A stretch of DNA of 64,000 nucleotides, taken from the NCBI GenBank assembly GCA_040753795.1, contig JBFMDX010000012.1, forward strand, positions 2,774 through 66,773, given 5' to 3'. Below are positions 15,529 to 25,502 of the stretch, in pieces. The notes beneath the pieces are model-generated. The model ran no database searches and was not told where the DNA came from. It saw only the letters and a list, made by a program, of their open reading frames with translations. The translations under genes were made by a program, and so were the position numbers. Within the stretch, counting starts at the first letter, position 1. Every line of letters starts with the position of its first letter. The stretch is from Thermodesulfobacteriota bacterium. Its GTDB lineage: Bacteria > Desulfobacterota > Desulfobacteria > Desulfobacterales > Desulfosudaceae.

Positions 15529-16158
15529 TTACAGGTCGATATAAAATGATTTCAGAATATGCCTGGGCATGCCCAGGGCGATATCCAGCATGATCCGCAT
15601 GCGGATCAATTGTTTTTTCAGGCCCATGCCTGGCGGACGCTTGACCAGAATGGCGCAGATGAATCGGGGATAGAGATGGGCCAGAAGGACATTGAGACAG
15701 CGGGAAAAAGACATGACCTTGACCAGATCCCCTTTGACCAGCAGCCGGCGTTCGGCGTAAGCCTGGGGCGTGCCCATCTGGGGCGTCAGGGCCATGAAGG
15801 CGCATTCGATATTTTTAAAATTGATGATAACATCCACGTCCCGCAATTTGGCCCCCCAGAGTTTGACCTCGCCGCCCTTGGCGATGCGTTCCCTGATATC
15901 ATTGCCCCGATCCTTTATTTTAATTCCCCGATAGAAAAGCCTGTCGTCACTTTTTTCAAAGGTCATGTACGGGCCGTGGGGCAGCACGTTCATCATCAGG
16001 GTAAAGCCGTTCTCCCAGGTATCGACCTCCTTCTTTATATCCGGGTCTCTGACGGCGGCCGCTTCCATGGCCGTGCCGAGAAAGAGGAATACGGCGTTGA
16101 CCGTGATTTCCTTGAACCATTTTCTTCCGGGTTCGACCGGCAGGTAGGGTCCCCCCAT
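15529..16158 (-). CDS. SCP2-like lipid-binding protein (tentative)
   Basis: The 209-residue protein has no signal peptide. Its central part (VDVIINFKNIECAFMALTPQ, then ERRLLVKGDLVKVMSFSRCLNVLLAHLYP) follows the SCP2/sterol-carrier pattern seen in the 123-residue protein at 35867-36238: a beta strand, then an L.V.GD strand, then a hydrophobic helix. SCP2-like domains bind fatty acyl chains or other lipids. It forms an operon with the Fe-type alcohol dehydrogenase. An AAGGAAAGGA leader supports ATG 16158. The N-terminal ~60 residues are unassigned. Confidence 0.55.
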   Translation of the reverse strand: MGGPYLPVEPGRKWFKEITVNAVFLFLGTAMEAAAVRDPDIKKEVDTWENGFTLMMNVLPHGPYMTFEKSDDRLFYRGIKIKDRGNDIRERIAKGGEVKLWGAKLRDVDVIINFKNIECAFMALTPQMGTPQAYAERRLLVKGDLVKVMSFSRCLNVLLAHLYPRFICAILVKRPPGMGLKKQLIRMRIMLDIALGMPRHILKSFYIDL

Positions 16159-16454
16159 CGCTCGTTCCTTTCCTTAAATGTCATCATACCGGCCTTCACC
16201 GGCCGGCGTTACGATTCAGGACAAGTGTCTCAAGTATCGGATAAAATTAATTTTGATGTCATAACATTCAGGGCCGGCGGTGTCAAACGGATTCACAAGG
16301 TTTTGGCCTTGCGGTTACAGTTGACAATTTTATAACGGGAGGTATAAAAACAAAAGGGAAATTCCCCGTTTGCCGGGGGGATGGCTTCAAAACACGCTTC
16401 ATCTCAATCAAGAGAACCGGAACGTTCAATTTTTTAAGGACAAATCTGGGTAAT
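16159..16454. other. Divergent intergenic region between the SCP2-like/ADH operon and the megasynthase
   Basis: It contains the megasynthase promoter (16321-16348), a perfect 12-base palindrome AAAATTAATTTT (16243-16254) and GC-rich CCGGCC repeats near the minus-strand gene. No small gene was found. Confidence 0.6.
16321..16348 (+). promoter_or_regulatory. Sigma-70 promoter of the PUFA-synthase-like gene
   Basis: A perfect -35 TTGACA (16321-16326), a 16-base spacer and -10 TATAAA (16343-16348) lie about 105 bases before the start codon. Confidence 0.65.
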
Positions 16455-19400
16455 ATGCCAAAACAGGAACCAATCGCCATTGTCGGCATGGGCGGGGTTT
16501 TCCCCGGCGCATCCACCACCCGTGACCTCTGGAAGAATATCGCCGCGGGCAGGGACGTGGTCTCTGAAATTCCGGGCCACCGCTGGGTTGTGCCGCCCCG
16601 GGAAGTGTACAGCGACCGATTTACCGTCGACAAGACCTATTCCATGCGGGCCGGCGTGGTTGATCTGGATTTTGACGGAGAAGGGTTTGAAATCGAGGCG
16701 TCTTTTCTCAAACGGCTGGACCCGCTTTATCATTACACGCTCGCCGCCGCCAGAGAAGCTTTTGCCGGATGCCGTTCTTCGTCCATCGTCCGCAGCCGGA
16801 CCGGCGTGATCCTGGCGGCTATCGCCCTGCCCACCGAGGGATCTTCCGCCATGGCCAACCGGATCATCGGTCGGCAGCTGCGGCAGCGGTTATTCGGGGA
16901 ACAGGTCGCGGATGATGATGCGCAGCCACTGGAACCGGCGGATATTATTTCGGCCAGGGTGACCAGCCAGCCGGCCTCTCTTCTGGCCAAGGCCTTTCGT
17001 CTGGGCGGGGGGTCCTACACCCTTGATGCCGCCTGTTCCACTTCCCTGTACGCGGTCAAGCTGGCCTGCGATGAATTGACCGCCGGCCGGGCCGACGCCA
17101 TGATCGCCGGCGGTGTTTCCCGGCCGGAGATTCTCTATACCCAGGTCGGTTTCACGCAGCTGCGGGCCCTGTCCCCGTCCGGCCGATGCCGTCCCTTTGA
17201 CGCCGATGCGGACGGACTGGTGGTGGGGGAGGGGGCGGGCGTGTTCGTGTTGAAGCGACTGACCGACGCCCTCCGGGACGGCGACCATATTTACGGCCTG
17301 ATCCGCGGTATCGGTCTGTCCAACGACATCGGCGGTAATCTTCTCTCCCCCGAAACCGAGGGACAGTTGCGCGCCATGCGAGCCGCCTACCGTCAGGCCG
17401 GATGGTCCGCTCATGATGTGGGCTTGATTGAATGCCACGGCACGGGAACCCCGGTTGGCGACGCCGTGGAGCTGGCCAGCATGAGCGCCTTGTGGGGAGA
17501 AACCGGCTGGACCGCCGGACAGTGTCCCATCGGCTCCATCAAATCCATGGTCGGTCACCTGCTGACCGCGGCGGGCGCCGCCAGCATGATCAAGACCCTG
17601 CTGGGGTTCGAGAACCGGACCCTGCCGCCTTCCGCCAATTTTTCGGCTCCGTCCGACAACAGCCCCCTGATCGGCGGTCCTTTCCGGGTGCAGACCCGGA
17701 CTGAAGAGTGGCGTCCCCTGAAGCCGGGCGAACCCCTCCGGGCGGCGGTAAGTTCCTTCGGGTTCGGCGGTATCAACGCCCATATTCTGCTGGAACAGTG
17801 GACGGGGCAGGAGATGGCGGCGAACATTACCGCCTCTTCAATAGCGATTACCGCCGATCAGGACCGCGACCCGCCCCCCCGTGCCCCGGATATCGCCGTG
17901 GTGGGCATGGAAGCGGTTTTCGGAAAAATTGCCGGGCTGCGCCGGTTTCAGGAAGCCGTATTCCGCGGAGACTCACTTTTTACGCGGCGCTCCCCTGACC
18001 GCTGGCGAGGATGTGATGCGGCGGCCAGACACTTTCTTGGCGCGGATATCGACCACGGTGTTTTCATCGACGACGTGTCGGTTTTAATTGGCGAATACCA
18101 TATTCCGCCCAATGAAATTGATCATGTCCTGTGTCAGCACCTGCTGGTGCTGAAGGCCTGCCGCCAGGCGATGATCGACGCCGGATTGCCCCTGCGGGAG
18201 AAGCGTCCCGCCATGGGGGTCGTGATCGGTATGGATTTTGACGCCGAAGCCAATGATTATCATTTCCGCTGGAATCTGACCAATGAGTTTGACCGCTGGA
18301 AACAGCGGTATGGCCTGACCGGGTCGCCGGATGACAACCGGGCCTGGATCGAGTCCATCCGGGATGCCTGGTCGCCCCCCCTGGTTTCTTCCCGGGTGGT
18401 CGGCGCCCTGGGCGGCATCATGGCCAGCCGCGTTGCCAAGGAATTCCAGCTGGGCGGACCGGGCTTTGTCGTCTCCTGCGATTCGGCATCCGGACTGCGG
18501 GCGCTGGAGATCGGCGTCCGTTCCCTGCAGCTTTTTGAGACGGATGCCTTCCTGGTGGGGGCGGTAGACCTTTCCGGAGATGTCCGGCGGATGGTCGTCG
18601 ACGATGTCCACCACCGGTTCAGCCGGTCCGGCCGGGTCCGTCCGTTTGATCTTCAGGCCGACGGACATCTGCCGGGCGAGGGGACGGCGGCCCTGGTGCT
18701 GAAGCGGCTGGAAGACGCCGTGGCGGACGGCAACCGCGTTTATTGCGTCATCAAGGGGTTCGGCAGCGCCGGCAGCCGGGATGTCATGGATGGCGAGCAG
18801 GAAGCCTTCGCCGCCGCCCTGGGAAAAGCCTACGGCGTTTCCCTGGAGCGTGCCTTTCAGGACGCCGGAGTGGATCCGGTCACCGTATCCCTGATGGAAA
18901 CCAGCGGCAGCGGCGATCCCGTAACAGATCATATCGAGGCAACGGCCCTGGGCGACTTTTTCAGGAAGTCCGAGGCCGGAACCGCGAAACAATGCGCCCT
19001 GGGTTCGGTCCAGTCCAATATCGGGCATACCGGCGCCGCCGCCGGTTTGGCCTCTTTTGTCAAAACCAGCCTCTGTCTTTACCAGCAGATCATACCGCCC
19101 CTGGTCAATTATACCGCTCCGGCCCAGCCCTGGTTTGATGAGACCTTTTTTCATGTGCCGCATTTTCCCTGCTGCTGGCTGCGGAACCGGATCGACGGCC
19201 CCCGCCGGGCCTGTACGGCGGCTGTCACCGCTGACGGCGTCTGCATGCATGTCATTACCGAGGAATACGACTATCCGCCTGAAACACCGGCGGCGTTATT
19301 GCGCCGGATGGAAATGGAACGGAAGAAGCCGCTTGGCTTCCGTCCGGACGCGGCCGGCCTGTTTATTGTCGAGGGGAATAACAATCGGGAACTGCTTCAG

Positions 19401-22400
19401 CGCCTGGACGCCCTGCAGGAGCACATCCGGACGATCGATGAGAAAGACGCCAACATCGAGAAAGTCGCCAGGCAGTGGTATCTCGCCAGGAACCCGGACG
19501 GCGGCCGATCCTATGCCGTGGCCATCGTGGCTGCGGACGTGATGGAGTTAAGTCGCTTTGTTGACGAGGCCAGGCAGAAGATCACCAGCGACAAACCCGC
19601 CAGCATCAGCGGCCGAAGGGGTATCCGCTATACCACCAGCGTGACCCCGGTAGGCGCGGCCGGCGGTCAAATCGCTTTTATCTTTCCCGGCTCCGGCAAC
19701 CACTATTTGGGCATGGGCCGGGATATCGGCATCGAATTTCCGGAAGTCATGCGCATCATGGACCGGGAAGCCAGAAAGCTCAGGGACCGGTTCCTGCCGG
19801 AATGCTATTTCCCCTTTCGGCATTCCTGGATGCCCGGATGGGAAGAGGAGAGCCGGAAAAAAATCGCCTCCGATCCGCTGCACATGATTATCGGGCAGGT
19901 CTCCTACGGCGGTCTGACGACCTGCCTGGCGGAACAGTTTAACCTCAAACCGGAGGCCGTTATCGGTTACAGCCTGGGTGAATCCGCCGGGTTGTTCGCC
20001 ACCGGCGCCTGGCGACAGCGCATCGAAATGCTGGAAAGAATGCAGGCGTCGGATCTGTTCACGACGCAACTGGCCGGGCCCTGCAACGCGGCCAGGCAGG
20101 TCTGGAACGTCCCTCCGGAAGAAACGGTCGACTGGTGCGTGGCCGTCGTCAACCGGGACGCGGCCGGGGTCAAAAAAGTGACCCGTGGATTTCCGGCTGT
20201 CCGTCTGCTGATCGTCAATACGCCGACTGAATGCGTTATCGGCGGCCGCAAAGCCCAGGTCGAGGAAGCCATCCGGGCCATCGGCTGCGAGGCCGTGTAC
20301 CTGGAAGGTGTTGTGACGGTTCATTGCGACGCGGCGGTTCCGGTCAAGGATGCCTACAAGGCGCTTCATGTTTTTCCGGTACAACCGCCAGAAAATGTCC
20401 GCTTTTACAGTTGCGCCAGGGGCCGATCCTATGAGTTGACGTCCGAGGCCGCGGCCCAATCCATTCTCGACCAGGCGGTGTACGGCTTTGATTTCACCCA
20501 GACGATCCGGCACGCCTACCGCGACGGGGTCCGGGTTTTTCTGGAGATGGGACCTCACAATTCCTGCAGCCGTATGATACAGAACATCCTCGGCGATTTA
20601 CCTCACCTGGCGGTTTCCATCTGCCACCGCTCGGAAGACAGTTATGCCGCCCTGCTGAAATTTCTGGGAACATTGATTGCCGAGCGGGTTCCGGTCAATC
20701 TCGATTTTCTTTACGGCCGGTCCTCCTGCCTCGAGGCGTTGCTGCTGCCGTCCATTGCCGGGGACATGGACCCCAGCCGTCTGGTTCACGTAAAAACCGG
20801 CGGTGTCCCGGATTTTCCGATAATTCCTGAATCCCTTGCGCACCGGCGGGAGTCCGCCTCCGGTGTGGGCGTGGTGAAAAAACTGTCCGTTGCTTTGCCG
20901 GTATCTGCACGTCGTGACGCAGCGGCGGTTTCCCGCGCTGATTTACACCGGGATGAACACGCCTCGGCCATTATGCGGGACATCGTCCGGGATTCGGAAA
21001 TCACCGCCCGGGCCCACCAGTCATTTCTTGAGTTTGCCGACCAGATGAATGAAGTTTTCGCCCGGACGTTTGCCCTTCAGACGCAGCTTCTGGAAAAAGC
21101 CATGGCAGCCGGTGATGCCGGAGCGATTGCCGAAATCGCTGCCCTGCAGCCAGCGGTCAGTCCGGTTCACCCGGTAGAACCGGAACGTCGGCCGTCCGCC
21201 GCTCCGGTATCCAATTCCGCTCCTGTCCCGGCTTCCTCCCCGGCCTTTCCCCGGGAAATGTGCATGGAATTCGCCGTGGGATCCGCGGGAAAAGTCCTCG
21301 GGCCCATGTTTGCCGTGGTAGATACCTACCCGGTGCGGGTTCGTCTTCCGGACGAGCCGCTCATGCTGGTCGACCGGATCCTGTCGGTAGAGGGGGAGAA
21401 GGGCTCACTCAAGTCCGGTGCGGTGGTGACGGAACATGACGTGAAACCGGACGCCTGGTACCTGGACGGGGGCAGGGCGCCGGTGTGCATTTCCATCGAG
21501 GCCGGTCAGGCCGATCTGTTTTTATGCGCCTGGCTGGGGATCGACCTGGCCGTAAAGGGAGAACGCAGTTATCGTCTCCTTGACGCCGTGGCCACCTTTC
21601 ATGAAGGGCTGCCCCGGCCGGGAGACACCATCCGTTACGAAATCAGGATCAACCGTTTTGTGCGTCAGGGCAAGACCTATCTTTTCTTTTTCGAATTCGA
21701 CGGGAAGATCGGCTCCCGTCATGTGATTACCATGCGGAACGGTTGCGCCGGTTTTTTTACCCCCGAGGAAGTCCGGGCGTCCGGCGGCATTGTACTGACC
21801 CATGAGGAGAAGCAGCCCGCCCGCGGCGTCATTAACGGCTGGCGGCCCCTGGTTCCTGTTTTCCGGGCGACCTATGATGACGGCCGGATCGACGCCTTGA
21901 GAAACGGGGATCCGGCCGCCTGTTTCGGCGATCTGTTTGCCGGGATCCAGCTGTCTTCCTCCCTGAAACTTCCCGGTGGACGCATGAAGCTCATTCATCG
22001 GATACAGCTGCTGGATCCCGCGGGCGGCCGTTACGGCCTGGGCCGGATCATGGCCGAAGCCGACATCCATCCGGACGACTGGTTTCTGGCCTGTCACTTT
22101 GTGGACGACATGGTCATGCCGGGTACCCTCATGTATCAATGCTGCGAACACGCCCTGCGGGTGCTCCTGATCCGCATGGGCTGGGTGAGCGAAAGAACGG
22201 AGGTGTGTTTTGAGCCGGTCCCGGACGTGGGTGCCGTGCTGAAATGCCGCGGCCCCGTCACCACCGCCACCCGCAAAGTGGTGTACGAGGTCGAGTTAAG
22301 TGAAATCGGGTACAACCCGGAACCGTATGTCAAGGCCGATGCGTTTATTTACGGAGACGGCGAGCGGATCGTCATGTTTAAAAACATGTCCCTGAAGCTG

Positions 22401-23651
22401 ACCGGCGTGACCCGGGATGAACTGGAAATCTTCTGGAACCGGAGGCGGTCGACGGAGAAACGGGTCGTCCGCTCCACGCAAACCCTTTATGACCGCGACA
22501 GGCTCCTGGCCTATGCCATCGGCAAACCGTCCGAAGCCTTCGGCGAACCTTACCGCATTTTCGACAGCGGCCGGATCATCGCACGGCTTCCCGGACCGCC
22601 GTATTTTTTCATGGACCGGGTCACATCTGTTGAACCGCCGCCATGGATCGTCAAAGCCGACGGCTGGATTGAAGCGGAATACACCGTCAGGCCGGATGAC
22701 TGGTATTTTGCGGCCAACCGTCAGCCGTCCATGCCTTTCTGCGTTCTGCTGGAAATCGCGCTGCAGCCCTGCGGCTGGCTGGCCGCCTATGCCGGATCCG
22801 CCCTGAAAAGCCCCACGGATGTGAAGTTCCGGAATCTTGGCGGCAGGGCCGTACAGTTCCATGATGTATTGAAGGATGGCGGTACGCTGATCATGCGCTG
22901 CCGCATGACCAAGGTATCCGAATCCGGCGGTATGATCATCGAACATTTTGATATCGAAGTGCTGTCCGAAAAGGAAAACAGCATGGTGTACCGGGGAACC
23001 ACCTATTTCGGGTTTTTTTCGAAACAGGCCCTGTCCCGGCAGGTGGGCATACCGGGAGCGGCCGGCAGAGCCTTCGAACCCGCTTCGGGAGATTTACATA
23101 AATGGGAAAAAATGGTTCTGGCGCGACCGGCACCGTTGACCCCTGATGACACGGCCGTCATGCCGTCCTCCGGCGCCGTCATGCCGTCCCGGGCGCTGCT
23201 GATGGTCGACGATATCGATGTCTATCTGCCGGAGGGCGGGTCCGCCGGTTTCGGCTTTATCCGCGGAACCAAAACCGTGGACCCGGATGAATGGTTTTTC
23301 AAGGCCCATTTTTACCAGGATCCGGTCTGCCCGGGATCCCTGGGACTGGAATCGTTTCTGCAGCTGCTTAAATTTGTCTGCCTGGAACGGTGGCCCCATC
23401 TGGCCGCTACTCACCGGTTCGAATTTGTCCTGAATAACGAACATGAGTGGATTTACCGGGGACAGGTCGTTCCGGGAAACCGGCAGGTAGTGGTTGACGC
23501 CGATATCATAGCCGTAGAAGAAACGCCTTTCCCGGTAGTTTTCGCCAACGGTTTTCTTAAAGTAGACGGATTGTTTATCTACGAGATGAGAAACTTCGGT
23601 GTCCGGATGGTCCCCGCGGAAAAGGCGGCACCCGGGTCATTGCAGGGTTGA
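16455..23651 (+). CDS. Pfa3/PfaC-like polyunsaturated-fatty-acid-synthase-type megasynthase (KS-CLF-AT-DH-DH)
   Basis: The 2398-residue protein reads in order: an active ketosynthase (Cys194, His328, His368; DAACSTS, ECHGTGT, GHLLTAAG); a chain-length-factor-like KS (~480-930) with Ser677 and Ser817 at the Cys and first His positions but His858 kept; an acyltransferase (~1070-1420; GYSLGES, Ser1173, His1290); a linker; then four hot-dog folds (~1605-2385) forming two FabA-like double-hot-dog dehydratases. The hot-dog region follows PfaC closely (FAVGSAGKVLGPMFAVVDTYPVRVRLP). KS-CLF-AT-DH-DH is the order of myxobacterial Pfa3 minus its AGPAT. No ACP, KR or ER is present here or nearby, so it must work with partners encoded elsewhere. 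Its end overlaps the convergent HD-GYP gene by 15 bases. The ribosome site is weak. Confidence 0.9.
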   Translation: MPKQEPIAIVGMGGVFPGASTTRDLWKNIAAGRDVVSEIPGHRWVVPPREVYSDRFTVDKTYSMRAGVVDLDFDGEGFEIEASFLKRLDPLYHYTLAAAREAFAGCRSSSIVRSRTGVILAAIALPTEGSSAMANRIIGRQLRQRLFGEQVADDDAQPLEPADIISARVTSQPASLLAKAFRLGGGSYTLDAACSTSLYAVKLACDELTAGRADAMIAGGVSRPEILYTQVGFTQLRALSPSGRCRPFDADADGLVVGEGAGVFVLKRLTDALRDGDHIYGLIRGIGLSNDIGGNLLSPETEGQLRAMRAAYRQAGWSAHDVGLIECHGTGTPVGDAVELASMSALWGETGWTAGQCPIGSIKSMVGHLLTAAGAASMIKTLLGFENRTLPPSANFSAPSDNSPLIGGPFRVQTRTEEWRPLKPGEPLRAAVSSFGFGGINAHILLEQWTGQEMAANITASSIAITADQDRDPPPRAPDIAVVGMEAVFGKIAGLRRFQEAVFRGDSLFTRRSPDRWRGCDAAARHFLGADIDHGVFIDDVSVLIGEYHIPPNEIDHVLCQHLLVLKACRQAMIDAGLPLREKRPAMGVVIGMDFDAEANDYHFRWNLTNEFDRWKQRYGLTGSPDDNRAWIESIRDAWSPPLVSSRVVGALGGIMASRVAKEFQLGGPGFVVSCDSASGLRALEIGVRSLQLFETDAFLVGAVDLSGDVRRMVVDDVHHRFSRSGRVRPFDLQADGHLPGEGTAALVLKRLEDAVADGNRVYCVIKGFGSAGSRDVMDGEQEAFAAALGKAYGVSLERAFQDAGVDPVTVSLMETSGSGDPVTDHIEATALGDFFRKSEAGTAKQCALGSVQSNIGHTGAAAGLASFVKTSLCLYQQIIPPLVNYTAPAQPWFDETFFHVPHFPCCWLRNRIDGPRRACTAAVTADGVCMHVITEEYDYPPETPAALLRRMEMERKKPLGFRPDAAGLFIVEGNNNRELLQRLDALQEHIRTIDEKDANIEKVARQWYLARNPDGGRSYAVAIVAADVMELSRFVDEARQKITSDKPASISGRRGIRYTTSVTPVGAAGGQIAFIFPGSGNHYLGMGRDIGIEFPEVMRIMDREARKLRDRFLPECYFPFRHSWMPGWEEESRKKIASDPLHMIIGQVSYGGLTTCLAEQFNLKPEAVIGYSLGESAGLFATGAWRQRIEMLERMQASDLFTTQLAGPCNAARQVWNVPPEETVDWCVAVVNRDAAGVKKVTRGFPAVRLLIVNTPTECVIGGRKAQVEEAIRAIGCEAVYLEGVVTVHCDAAVPVKDAYKALHVFPVQPPENVRFYSCARGRSYELTSEAAAQSILDQAVYGFDFTQTIRHAYRDGVRVFLEMGPHNSCSRMIQNILGDLPHLAVSICHRSEDSYAALLKFLGTLIAERVPVNLDFLYGRSSCLEALLLPSIAGDMDPSRLVHVKTGGVPDFPIIPESLAHRRESASGVGVVKKLSVALPVSARRDAAAVSRADLHRDEHASAIMRDIVRDSEITARAHQSFLEFADQMNEVFARTFALQTQLLEKAMAAGDAGAIAEIAALQPAVSPVHPVEPERRPSAAPVSNSAPVPASSPAFPREMCMEFAVGSAGKVLGPMFAVVDTYPVRVRLPDEPLMLVDRILSVEGEKGSLKSGAVVTEHDVKPDAWYLDGGRAPVCISIEAGQADLFLCAWLGIDLAVKGERSYRLLDAVATFHEGLPRPGDTIRYEIRINRFVRQGKTYLFFFEFDGKIGSRHVITMRNGCAGFFTPEEVRASGGIVLTHEEKQPARGVINGWRPLVPVFRATYDDGRIDALRNGDPAACFGDLFAGIQLSSSLKLPGGRMKLIHRIQLLDPAGGRYGLGRIMAEADIHPDDWFLACHFVDDMVMPGTLMYQCCEHALRVLLIRMGWVSERTEVCFEPVPDVGAVLKCRGPVTTATRKVVYEVELSEIGYNPEPYVKADAFIYGDGERIVMFKNMSLKLTGVTRDELEIFWNRRRSTEKRVVRSTQTLYDRDRLLAYAIGKPSEAFGEPYRIFDSGRIIARLPGPPYFFMDRVTSVEPPPWIVKADGWIEAEYTVRPDDWYFAANRQPSMPFCVLLEIALQPCGWLAAYAGSALKSPTDVKFRNLGGRAVQFHDVLKDGGTLIMRCRMTKVSESGGMIIEHFDIEVLSEKENSMVYRGTTYFGFFSKQALSRQVGIPGAAGRAFEPASGDLHKWEKMVLARPAPLTPDDTAVMPSSGAVMPSRALLMVDDIDVYLPEGGSAGFGFIRGTKTVDPDEWFFKAHFYQDPVCPGSLGLESFLQLLKFVCLERWPHLAATHRFEFVLNNEHEWIYRGQVVPGNRQVVVDADIIAVEETPFPVVFANGFLKVDGLFIYEMRNFGVRMVPAEKAAPGSLQG
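23154..23189 (+). repeat. Short direct repeat within the megasynthase linker
   Basis: GCCGTCATGCCGTCC occurs at 23154-23168 and again at 23175-23189 (period 21 bases). It encodes AVMPSSGAVMPS in the linker before the last hot-dog domain and looks like a small in-frame duplication. Confidence 0.7.
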
Positions 23652-25502
23652 CGGCGCCTGGAATTTCAGCAGATTGCTTCCCAGAATTTCCTTAAAGCGG
23701 CTTTCCGCTATCAGCAGAGCATCGACAATCTCCGGGTCGAACTGACGCCCTTTCTCTTTGATGATAATGTCCATGGCGTCTTCGTGGGAAATGGCTTTTT
23801 TGTAGACCCGATCGGACGTTAACGCGTCATATACGTCCGCCACCGCCACGATCCGGGCGGCCAGCGGTATTTCCTCCCGGGTCAGGCCGACGGGATAACC
23901 CTTGCCGTCCCACCGCTCATGATGAAAATAGCAGATCTGCTTGCCGATGGTTAAGAAGGATTTGCCTTTCACCTGCAGCTCTACGGCTCGCAGGGCATCG
24001 CCCCCCAGTTTGGAGTGTTCCTTGACGATTTCATATTCATCGCTGGTGAGGGGACCGGGCTTGAGGAGGATATCATCGGGAATGCCGACTTTCCCGATGT
24101 CGTGCAGCATGGAAGAGATGTAGATGTCTTCTATATATTCAGGGGTAACGTATTCGGCGTATCGGGGGCTGTGCTGGAGCTGCTCCGTCAGCGTTTTGGT
24201 ATAGGCCATGATACGTTCCAGGTGCTCGCCGGTATTCTGGTCCCGATACTCGGCCAGCTTGGCCAGTCCCAGAATCGTCATGGTCTGCGTCTGCTTGATG
24301 TTTTCGTAGGAATCCAGCAGTTTCTGTTCCATGGTTTTGCGGGTGGTGATATCCCTGATAATTCCCCGGAAACCGACGGGCGCTCCCGCGGAATTATCGA
24401 TCCGGCTGGCCGATACTTCCAGAAAACTGAAAGAGCCGTCAGCCCTTTTGATTTCCCAGTTCATGTCGTGAGCGGGGTACCGGGTCTGATAGACTTCATT
24501 AAGTATCCAGAGCGTCTCTTCCGCCTTTTCCTTGGTTATGTAGTCGCGAAAGTTTTTGCCCAGCAGCTGGTCTTCGGATTCACAATTGTATATGTCCAGC
24601 GTCGAGGAGTTGACAAAGGTAAAGTTTCCGGCCAGGTCGATTTCATAAAAACCTTCTTCGATATTGTCGATAATGGTCCGGTATTTTTCCTCGCTTTTTT
24701 TCAGGTTTTCCTGAGATCGTTTATGCTCTGAAATGGTCAGGTTCAGGTCCTCATTGATCTTGATCAGCTGCCGGGTCCGCTCCTGCACATTTTCTTCCAG
24801 TTCGCGGTTGGCGGCTTTTACTTTTTCCTGTTCGGCTTCAATCATTTTAACATAGAAAAAGTCCTTGCGTGCCGACAGCTCGATGATATAGCAGGCGAAC
24901 ATGCCGGTAATGTTGGCGGTGATAAAGAAGAAATTGTTGCTGAACAGCACGGGCGGCGGCGTGTCGATGATGATGGCGACCACTTCATAAATGAGAACCA
25001 GAGACCAGCAGCAGATGGTCGCCCAGATGAAACGGAACCGTAGCAGGGTATAGGCGAACAGAAAAACAATGATCAGCCCGGCGTAGTAGGTGTGGCGCAG
25101 GGGATTTGAGGCAACCGGGATCATCGCGATCACGGCGCAGCCGATGGCGAAAATGGACAGGGCAATCATCAACTGCATCATCCTTCTGAACATCCGGGAG
25201 AAGGAGACGACCATGCCGCCAAGCATCACCGGCACAATGATACCGAAGCGGATGGCCCACAGTTTTCTGACATTGTCCGGATCCAGAAAGAGGTCCAGAA
25301 CGGCGAACAGACTCCAGGAAATGATTCCCAGGAGAATCGCGTAGCGCAGCTGTTTTAAGGATCGGGAGAGATAATAGTTATAAAAAGAGTTTTCGTAATC
25401 GGCGTAATCGCCGATGAAGTTCAGGGTAAAAGGGTTGAGCGTCAGCTTGCCGTTGGTGCTGACGCCTGTTTTCACGGTTGTTTCCGGGTGTTTGAATTTC
25501 AT
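23637..25502 (-). CDS. Membrane PAS-HD-GYP cyclic di-GMP phosphodiesterase
   Basis: The 621-residue protein has about six N-terminal membrane segments (~53-208), a coiled coil (~215-270), a PAS domain with PAC (~271-390) and a C-terminal HD-GYP domain. The catalytic HD pair is His467-Asp468 (MLHDIGKVGIP), with HHERWDGKGYP at 527-537, so the diagnostic GYP is intact and hydrolysis of cyclic di-GMP is expected. It is a membrane-anchored sensor that could lower cyclic di-GMP read by the window's three PilZ proteins. Its last codons overlap the megasynthase gene tail to tail. Confidence 0.93.
   Translation of the reverse strand: MKFKHPETTVKTGVSTNGKLTLNPFTLNFIGDYADYENSFYNYYLSRSLKQLRYAILLGIISWSLFAVLDLFLDPDNVRKLWAIRFGIIVPVMLGGMVVSFSRMFRRMMQLMIALSIFAIGCAVIAMIPVASNPLRHTYYAGLIIVFLFAYTLLRFRFIWATICCWSLVLIYEVVAIIIDTPPPVLFSNNFFFITANITGMFACYIIELSARKDFFYVKMIEAEQEKVKAANRELEENVQERTRQLIKINEDLNLTISEHKRSQENLKKSEEKYRTIIDNIEEGFYEIDLAGNFTFVNSSTLDIYNCESEDQLLGKNFRDYITKEKAEETLWILNEVYQTRYPAHDMNWEIKRADGSFSFLEVSASRIDNSAGAPVGFRGIIRDITTRKTMEQKLLDSYENIKQTQTMTILGLAKLAEYRDQNTGEHLERIMAYTKTLTEQLQHSPRYAEYVTPEYIEDIYISSMLHDIGKVGIPDDILLKPGPLTSDEYEIVKEHSKLGGDALRAVELQVKGKSFLTIGKQICYFHHERWDGKGYPVGLTREEIPLAARIVAVADVYDALTSDRVYKKAISHEDAMDIIIKEKGRQFDPEIVDALLIAESRFKEILGSNLLKFQAPSTLQ

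What the first reader, a model, noticed from the sequence alone, without database searches (positions are those of the whole stretch)
16455..23651. Orphan Pfa3-like megasynthase (KS-CLF-AT-DH-DH) without ACP, KR or ER
The domain order equals myxobacterial Pfa3 without the AGPAT, or PfaC with an acyltransferase inserted. The KS and AT keep their catalytic residues. The gene stands alone with its own promoter and convergent or divergent neighbours. In known PUFA synthases, partner genes with ACP repeats, KR and ER are adjacent. It may serve a secondary lipid or use ACPs in trans.
Basis: partly seen in the sequence, partly recalled or inferred. Interest (0 to 1): 0.76.

Follow-up and report, generated by a model that had tools for sequence, protein, structure and literature searches.

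The report
Displaced subunit of split PUFA synthase
This giant gene makes one part of a known kind of enzyme that builds polyunsaturated fatty chains; its missing partners are encoded elsewhere in the same genome, and its relatives often sit beside genes that join such chains into long hydrocarbons.

Summary
The gene and its domain order are real: 2398 aa, KS-CLF-AT followed by four FabA-like hotdogs, catalytic residues intact. "Orphan" is true only locally. The same genome carries pfaD and pfaA (KS-MAT-ACPx3-KR-DH) side by side on another contig, and an oleABCD-like set on a third. The KS groups with PfaC-type KS; the AT best matches PfaB, a long-chain terminal acyltransferase. So this is the PfaBC subunit of a complete but dispersed PUFA synthase, the kind Shulse & Allen (2011) called types I and K. 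Two relatives of its family keep pfaD-pfaA-pfaBC-HD-GYP together; here the same flanks stand on either side of a break between pfaA and pfaBC. In 58 genomes of the order, one per genus, 49 have pfaBC; 48 of these have oleA and 49 oleC. In 33 of 49, pfaBC lies directly upstream of oleA. The likeliest product is therefore a polyunsaturated chain that OleA condenses to a hydrocarbon of the hentriacontanonaene kind, as known in Geobacter and Shewanella. Product and assembly in trans are inferred, not shown. The enzyme kind is known; the dispersal and the order-wide ole linkage are the modestly new part.

The parts
16455..23651 (+). pfaBC gene (PfaC/PfaB fusion), 2398 aa
   Evidence: 46-67% identity to 27 relatives aligned
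16455..17819 (+). ketosynthase (KS), residues about 1-455; C194, H328, H368
   Evidence: Pfam; 28 of 28 conserved; PfaC-type clade; best solved relative 6riw 'ORF10', matched over residues 5-878, KS and CLF
17892..19289 (+). chain-length factor (CLF), residues about 480-945; active-site Cys replaced (S677)
   Evidence: second ketoacyl-synt pair; alignment to the KS; Cys in 0 of 28
19662..20627 (+). PfaB-type acyltransferase, residues about 1070-1391; GYSLG S1173, H1290, MAT arginine absent
   Evidence: best solved relative 9ry8 PfaBs, 100 bits against 41 for the next; Y1172 and S1173 28 of 28; TIGR02816 119 bits, below its cut-off of 144
21222..23618 (+). dehydratase region, residues 1590-2388: four FabA-like hotdogs, two with catalytic His (H1881, H2285)
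   Evidence: Pfam FabA, 4 stretches; FabA among solved relatives; both His 28 of 28
23637..25502 (-). convergent PAS-HD-GYP gene, a conserved downstream neighbour that marks the old junction
   Evidence: the same neighbour, 60-65% identical, follows pfaBC in G001 and G002

Best explanation
The gene encodes PfaBC, one of three subunits of an iterative PUFA synthase. PfaA (KS-MAT-ACPx3-KR-DH) and PfaD (enoyl reductase), encoded on another contig, supply the malonyl loading, carrier domains, ketoreduction and enoyl reduction. PfaBC supplies a second condensing pair (KS-CLF, chain length), two FabA-like dehydratases that set or keep cis double bonds, and a PfaB-type acyltransferase that handles the long acyl chain at the end. 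A phosphopantetheinyl transferase encoded elsewhere charges the ACPs. The polyunsaturated acyl chain is most likely taken by OleA and condensed head to head, then processed by OleB, C and D to a very long polyunsaturated hydrocarbon, as known for hentriacontanonaene (C31:9). Shown here: presence of these genes in one genome, domain identity, catalytic residues, phylogeny, co-occurrence and gene order in relatives. Inferred: assembly in trans, the reaction sequence, and the product.
For: Domains and residues. PfaD and PfaA in the same genome. Four adjacent genes on C14 in the order A-B-C-D: NF006720, 472 bits, cut-off 285 (named 3-oxoacyl-ACP synthase III; that it is the OleA model is recalled); an alpha/beta hydrolase of haloalkane-dehalogenase type; NF006754, 746 bits, cut-off 478, with olefin beta-lactone synthetase next best; an olefin-pathway 2-alkyl-3-oxoalkanoate reductase as best match. 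KS tree: 24 pfaBC rows plus 6riw in one group, 12 PfaA rows in another. Family relatives G001 and G002: pfaD-pfaA-pfaBC-HD-GYP in one row. Survey of 58 genomes: pfaBC in 49, oleA in 48 of these, oleC in 49 of 49, pfaD over the cut-off in 46 of 49; pfaBC match within 830 bp upstream of oleA on the same strand in 33 of 49. Phylum survey of 198: 9 genomes hold a DH region more than 50% identical, 9 of 9 have oleA (21 of 198 overall), 7 of 9 within 285 bp. G154, outside the order: pfaD-pfaA-pfaBC-oleA in one row. Literature: G. bemidjiensis has pfa and ole genes in tandem and makes C31:9 (PMC4882568, passages); OleA condenses Pfa-derived chains (PMC6463001, abstract and passages); PfaB is a terminal long-chain acyltransferase (PMC12895367, abstract and passages).
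Against: In the window's genome pfaBC is adjacent neither to pfaA/D nor to ole. 16 of 49 pfaBC genomes do not show the pfaBC-oleA adjacency; some may be contig breaks, but in G002, G028 and G051 both genes lie on one contig 103-474 kb apart. oleA also occurs without pfaBC (2 of 58; 12 of 198 without a close pfaBC, one of them, G093, with a 36% one), so Ole can use other chains. One pfaBC genome (G033, 65% complete) lacks oleA; three (G023, G027, G033) lack an over-cut-off pfaD, though G027 has a fragment at a contig end. The AT scores under the PfaB family cut-off and only just over the Pfam cut-off. OleB, OleD and the specific olefin beta-lactone synthetase models are all under their cut-offs (OleD 410 and 382 against 580; OleC 621 and 595 against 900 and 850). 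11 of the 33 adjacent cases rest on the C-terminal piece of a gene cut by a contig end or scaffold gap. Two of the 49 counted (G015, G049) are 34-40% identical copies, perhaps of another type. No lipid or expression data.
Confidence: 0.78

Rival explanations
1. The same dispersed synthase makes a membrane PUFA (EPA/DHA-like or shorter) for phospholipids; the ole genes act on ordinary FAS II chains and the gene order is a shared-regulation effect.
For: All Pfa parts are present; the AT is PfaB-type, and PfaB is a terminal acyltransferase (PMC12895367, abstract and passages); oleA exists without pfaBC in 2 of 58 genomes and without a close pfaBC in 12 of 198; in this genome pfaBC is not next to ole.
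Against: Close pfaBC is rarely seen without oleA (48 of 49 with it; 9 of 9) and is directly upstream of oleA in 33 of 49; Geobacter with a like gene row makes C31:9 (PMC4882568, passages).
Confidence: 0.2
2. The gene is a true orphan working with ACPs of another pathway (secondary lipid or polyketide).
For: No ACP, KR or ER beside it; another type II FAS-like cluster with KS, KR and PPTase exists at C2.
Against: A cognate PfaA/PfaD pair is present in the genome, and the same pair is contiguous with pfaBC in two relatives of the family.
Confidence: 0.03
3. The split is an assembly error: pfaBC is really next to pfaA.
For: The genome is in 41 contigs, the first 2.8 kb of contig C12 hold 100 undetermined bases, and the same flanks stand on both sides of the missing junction in G001 and G002.
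Against: The window itself and C23:4000-43999, which hold the two breakpoints, contain no undetermined base, and blastn finds no similarity between the two breakpoints. pfaBC and pfaD are also far apart in G012, a single-contig genome (1.11 Mb), and in G051 (0.95 Mb). Reads were not available.
Confidence: 0.08
4. A decaying, inactive copy.
For: Separated from both partner loci.
Against: Full-length open frame with every catalytic residue examined kept.
Confidence: 0.02

Closest known systems
pfaBC fusions of secondary-lipid-synthase types I and K (Shulse & Allen 2011, PMC3098273; passages and section 10 read)
   Same: Type I is described there as holding a pfaBC fusion (Geobacter, Desulfuromonas, Pelobacter, Gemmata) and type K (Desulfococcus oleovorans) as of similar configuration; the KS rows next to the window's clade are Desulfuromonadales-type.
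   Different: There the genes are described as clusters; here pfaBC is, by contig coordinates, 34 kb or more from pfaD-pfaA and from ole.
Geobacter bemidjiensis pfa-ole row, maker of hentriacontanonaene (PMC4882568, passages)
   Same: Same set of functions: PfaD, PfaA, PfaB/C, OleA-D.
   Different: One row of genes there; three loci here. Product unknown here.
Marine gammaproteobacterial PfaA-E
   Same: KS-CLF (6riw), PfaB-type AT (9ry8), FabA-like DH, PfaD.
   Different: PfaB and PfaC are separate proteins there, and the ACP array is longer (5-9 ACPs typical, PMC12895367, passage); 3 ACPs here.
Myxobacterial Pfa3 (recalled domain order KS-CLF-AT-DH-DH-AGPAT)
   Same: Order of the first five domains.
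   Different: No AGPAT here.
Thraustochytrid PUFA synthase (recalled)
   Same: Subunits encoded by separate genes.
   Different: The domains are divided among subunits differently.

Membership tests
PUFA synthase PfaBC subunit (types I/K) | KS with Cys-His-His triad | tested here: met
   C194, H328, H368 in 28 of 28
PUFA synthase PfaBC subunit (types I/K) | CLF: KS-like domain without the active-site Cys | tested here: met
   S677 here; Cys in 0 of 28
PUFA synthase PfaBC subunit (types I/K) | KS falls with PfaC-type KS, not PfaA-type or modular PKS | tested here: met
   39-row tree; pfaBC rows one side of a branch, 98/99; with 6riw 95/90. FabF and PksL are long rows, their place unsure; only one modular PKS row was included
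PUFA synthase PfaBC subunit (types I/K) | PfaB-type acyltransferase (GYS motif, MAT arginine absent) | tested here: met
   9ry8 PfaBs best; Y1172-S1173 28 of 28, no Arg at the aligned place 1199
PUFA synthase PfaBC subunit (types I/K) | Score over the curated PfaB model TIGR02816 | tested here: not met
   119.3 bits, cut-off 144.3; that the model was made for stand-alone PfaB is recalled, so it is not a defining feature of the fusion
PUFA synthase PfaBC subunit (types I/K) | FabA-like DH pair | tested here: met
   Four FabA stretches, two with His
Complete PUFA synthase | PfaA with tandem ACPs, MAT and KR | tested here: met
   C23, 2216 aa, three PP-binding stretches
Complete PUFA synthase | PfaD enoyl reductase | tested here: met
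   636 bits, cut-off 449
Complete PUFA synthase | PfaE-type phosphopantetheinyl transferase | tested here: inconclusive
   Two PPTase-superfamily genes, on C7 and C2; which one serves PfaA is not known
Complete PUFA synthase | Genes clustered | tested here: not met
   pfaBC on C12, pfaD-pfaA on C23; clustered in G001 and G002
Myxobacterial Pfa3 | C-terminal AGPAT | tested here: not met
   No acyltransferase of that family by Pfam
Pfa-Ole hydrocarbon pathway | OleA, OleB, OleC, OleD in the genome | tested here: met
   C14 set of four adjacent genes; A and C over the cut-offs of NF006720 and NF006754, B and D by best match only, under the cut-offs
Pfa-Ole hydrocarbon pathway | Polyunsaturated long-chain hydrocarbon made | not testable with these tools
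   No lipid data

The most novel reading that the evidence does not exclude
Across an order of sulfate reducers the PUFA synthase is a dispersed megasynthase dedicated to hydrocarbons: its last subunit, PfaBC, is parted from pfaD-pfaA and sits in the ole operon in many families, and in some lineages wanders further (three loci here, four in G051), so that these anaerobes make C31:9-type polyunsaturated hydrocarbons, not membrane PUFAs, from subunits that find each other in trans.
Probability: 0.4. Interest if true: 0.6.

Novelty: new member of a known kind. Interest (0 to 1): 0.42.

Why it matters
It turns an apparent orphan into a testable prediction: sulfate reducers of this order should make polyunsaturated long-chain hydrocarbons, an oxygen-independent lipid class known from Shewanella and Geobacter. 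If so, they could be a source of labile hydrocarbon in anoxic sediments and waters; a 2023 study already found oleC genes related to Desulfobacteraceae in anoxic lake water (PMC10176705, passages). It also shows that mining genomes by gene cluster can misread such synthases as orphans, and gives natural cases in which megasynthase subunits must assemble without operon linkage.

Tried and rejected
Apparent fission of pfaBC into KS-CLF-AT and DH-DH halves in G042, G053, G055 and G056 was checked and rejected: contig ends in the first three, runs of N at the inner ends in G056.

Of the three PF08541 matches in the genome, the one on C18 proved HMG-CoA-synthase-like and the one on C24 (presumably FabH) was not scanned; the one on C14 is the OleA candidate. 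Matches to 'pfa' in PMC10553843 and PMC2702500 were only the word Pfam or a surname; PMC7064751 gave one passage, in its references, of no use.

A remnant of the pfaA-pfaBC spacer at either breakpoint was looked for and not found: scores within those of shuffled spacers. In G002 the best matches of the window's upstream neighbours lie elsewhere (Fe-ADH at 2.78 Mb, Na/Pi cotransporter at 2.87 Mb, pfaBC at 2.00 Mb), which fits a rearrangement but does not date or prove it.

The genome-contig scan found 13 loci, its patterns coming from one sequence; the relatives survey was used for counts instead. No structure was predicted: sequence matches to solved PfaB (9ry8) and to 6riw sufficed.

Not found in print, as far as searched: C31:9 hydrocarbon or a Pfa product in this order. 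The library lacks most subscription papers, and the 2010 OleA survey (PMC2893475) is not held.

Full report
What is there. The window holds one open reading frame of 2398 codons at 16455-23651, plus strand. Pfam gives two ketosynthase pairs, a weak acyltransferase and four FabA-like stretches, and no ACP, KR, ER or glycerol-phosphate acyltransferase. The first part (KS-CLF) matches a solved chain, 6riw 'ORF10', over residues 5-878 at 393-396 bits, the longest match among the 60 shown of 157 (alignment). From memory 6riw is the PfaC KS-CLF didomain of a marine PUFA producer; the calls give only the name ORF10. The acyltransferase best matches 9ry8, named PfaBs, at 100 bits, against 41 for the next chain; it carries GYSLG in place of the GHSxG of malonyl transferases and has no arginine at the malonate-binding place, features that PMC12895367 gives for PfaB (passages). 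It scores 119 bits to the PfaB family model, under its cut-off of 144. The dehydratase region matches FabA structures. In an alignment of the window protein with 27 relatives (46-67% identical; two pairs of rows look like the same genomes), KS C194, H328 and H368, AT Y1172, S1173 and H1290, and DH H1881 and H2285 are invariant, and the CLF never has the active-site Cys.

Not an orphan. The genome (4.75 Mb, 41 contigs, 99.76% complete) holds a PfaD at C23:15252-16565 and, directly after it, a 2216-aa PfaA: KS-MAT-three ACPs-KR-DH. The pfaBC gene starts 19.2 kb into the 138.9-kb contig C12 and the pfaD frame about 15 kb into the 65.8-kb contig C23, so even if these contigs touched the loci would be about 34 kb apart by coordinates. 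The first 2.8 kb of C12 hold 100 undetermined bases; the window (which begins at C12:2774) and C23:4000-43999 hold none. Two PPTase-superfamily genes lie on C7 and C2. So a whole PUFA synthase is encoded, with its subunits apart.

Where the split came from. In two relatives of the same family, G002 (one contig) and G001, the order is pfaD-pfaA-pfaBC followed by a convergent PAS-HD-GYP gene; in G002 an M24 peptidase and a XerC/D recombinase stand before pfaD, while in G001 no XerC match was found in the stretch held and both pfaA and pfaBC are read in two frames each. In the window's genome the M24-XerC-pfaD-pfaA side is on C23 and the pfaBC-HD-GYP side is in the window. The simplest reading is a rearrangement between pfaA and pfaBC in this lineage. 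No remnant of the spacer and no blastn match between the breakpoints was found, and the best matches of the window gene's upstream neighbours lie about 0.8 Mb from pfaBC in G002. XerC directly before pfaD is also found in G003, G005, G051 and G055, but not in G012.

Relatives and the ole link. The relatives search gave 58 genomes, one per genus, G000 included (its list of weak matches was cut). I counted pfaBC in 49, leaving out matches that cover only a KS (weaker than about 1e-85, among them a KS fragment at a contig end in G050) and further divergent copies in G008, G019 and G037, but counting G031, a 211-residue fragment at a contig end. 'oleA' means a match to NF006720 and 'oleC' one to NF006754. 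Of these 49, oleA is in 48, oleC in 49, pfaD over its cut-off in 46 (G027 adds a fragment) (Fisher p of 9e-7 for oleA, not corrected for kinship). In 33 of 49 the pfaBC match ends within 830 bp upstream of the oleA match on the same strand; 11 of these 33 rest on the C-terminal piece of a gene cut by a contig end or scaffold gap. pfaD is within 20 kb of pfaBC in 8 of 49, farther on the same contig in 4, on another contig in 34 and not found over the cut-off in 3; four genomes (G005, G010, G016, G055) have both pfaD near and oleA adjacent. Many of these genomes are fragmented, so 'another contig' does not prove distance; the single-contig genome G012 (1.11 Mb) and the two-contig genome G051 (0.95 Mb) do show it. 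Two of the 49 (G015, G049) are divergent, 34-40% identical copies. In a draw of 198 genomes from the phylum, 13 have the dehydratase region; the 9 above 50% identity all have oleA (21 of 198 overall) and 7 of the 9 have it within 285 bp; of the 4 at 34-36% only G093 has oleA. Four genomes with close pfaBC (G000, G012, G025, G055) are in both surveys. G154, from outside the order, has pfaD-pfaA-pfaBC-oleA in one row; L051, a named Desulfuromonadales contig, has pfaA-pfaBC-oleA-oleB-oleC-oleD. Two named contigs filed under Desulfosudis oleivorans have pfaD-pfaA-pfaBC and no ole match in the stretch held, which ends 2.7 kb (L045) and 10 kb (L047) after pfaBC.

The window's own genome keeps an oleABCD-like set on C14. 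So this lineage has three loci: xerC-pfaD-pfaA, pfaBC and ole. G051 appears to have four (pfaA 1.92 Mb, pfaD 2.21 Mb, pfaBC 3.16 Mb, ole 3.64 Mb).

Phylogeny. In a 39-row KS tree all pfaBC rows lie on one side of a branch and all PfaA rows on one side (98/99 each); the window groups with its family relative (100/100), then with 16 further rows from the order and from named Desulfobacteraceae-type contigs (99/98), then with three Desulfuromonadales-type rows (93/92), then with 6riw and three plasmid-borne pfaC-like rows (95/90). FabF and PksL are long rows.

How it probably works. PfaA loads malonyl units and carries the chain on its ACPs; KR, DH and PfaD process it; PfaBC adds the second KS with its CLF, the FabA-like dehydratases and the terminal acyltransferase. 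That division is established knowledge of PUFA synthases, applied here by homology. Because pfaBC in this phylum is rarely found without ole and is mostly directly before oleA, the chain most likely goes to OleA. Published precedent: OleA takes chains from the Pfa synthase (PMC6463001, abstract and passages); G. bemidjiensis with tandem pfa and ole genes makes C31:9 (PMC4882568, passages); Shulse and Allen proposed the same use for type I clusters (PMC3098273, section 10). I have no lipid data; the product is inferred.

Known or new. The protein is a new member of a known kind (type I/K pfaBC). oleC genes related to Desulfobacteraceae are in print (PMC10176705, passages). What I did not find in seven paper searches (listings, with passages of some papers) is a report of the dispersed arrangement or of a Pfa/Ole product in this order. 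The order's name is inferred: named close loci are mostly Desulfobacteraceae and Desulfosudis, and two unnamed 'same order' genomes have KS sequences identical to named Desulfobacteraceae contigs.

Noticed in passing
L005:19326-19375 (G000:C23, just after the pfaA stop): An AT-rich run of near-repeated TTAAGT units stands right at the pfaA side of the breakpoint (seen); it may be incidental.
   Followed up: no
G051 (pfaA 1.92 Mb, pfaD 2.21 Mb, pfaBC 3.16 Mb, ole 3.64 Mb): The four parts of the putative Pfa-Ole pathway lie at four separate places of a two-contig genome.
   Followed up: partly
L007:8011-14074 (G000:C2): A type II FAS-like set (FabG-like KR, FabF-like KS, weak acyltransferase match, PPTase) followed by a YadA-like trimeric autotransporter; could be an aryl-polyene-like or other lipid cluster.
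   Followed up: partly
L060:6142-8892 (G000:C18): A 916-aa gene joining an HMG-CoA-synthase-like part with an SDR reductase part.
   Followed up: no
L005:9840-10841; also G002, G003, G005, G051, G055: A XerC/D-type recombinase gene directly before pfaD recurs in several families of the order (not in G012).
   Followed up: partly
window 15559-16335: The 258-aa ORF just upstream of pfaBC, and the 209-aa ORF opposite it, match no Pfam family; neither may be a gene.
   Followed up: partly
L064:3313-16347 (G001:C77): In this relative pfaA and pfaBC are each read in two frames, which may be sequencing errors or decay.
   Followed up: no
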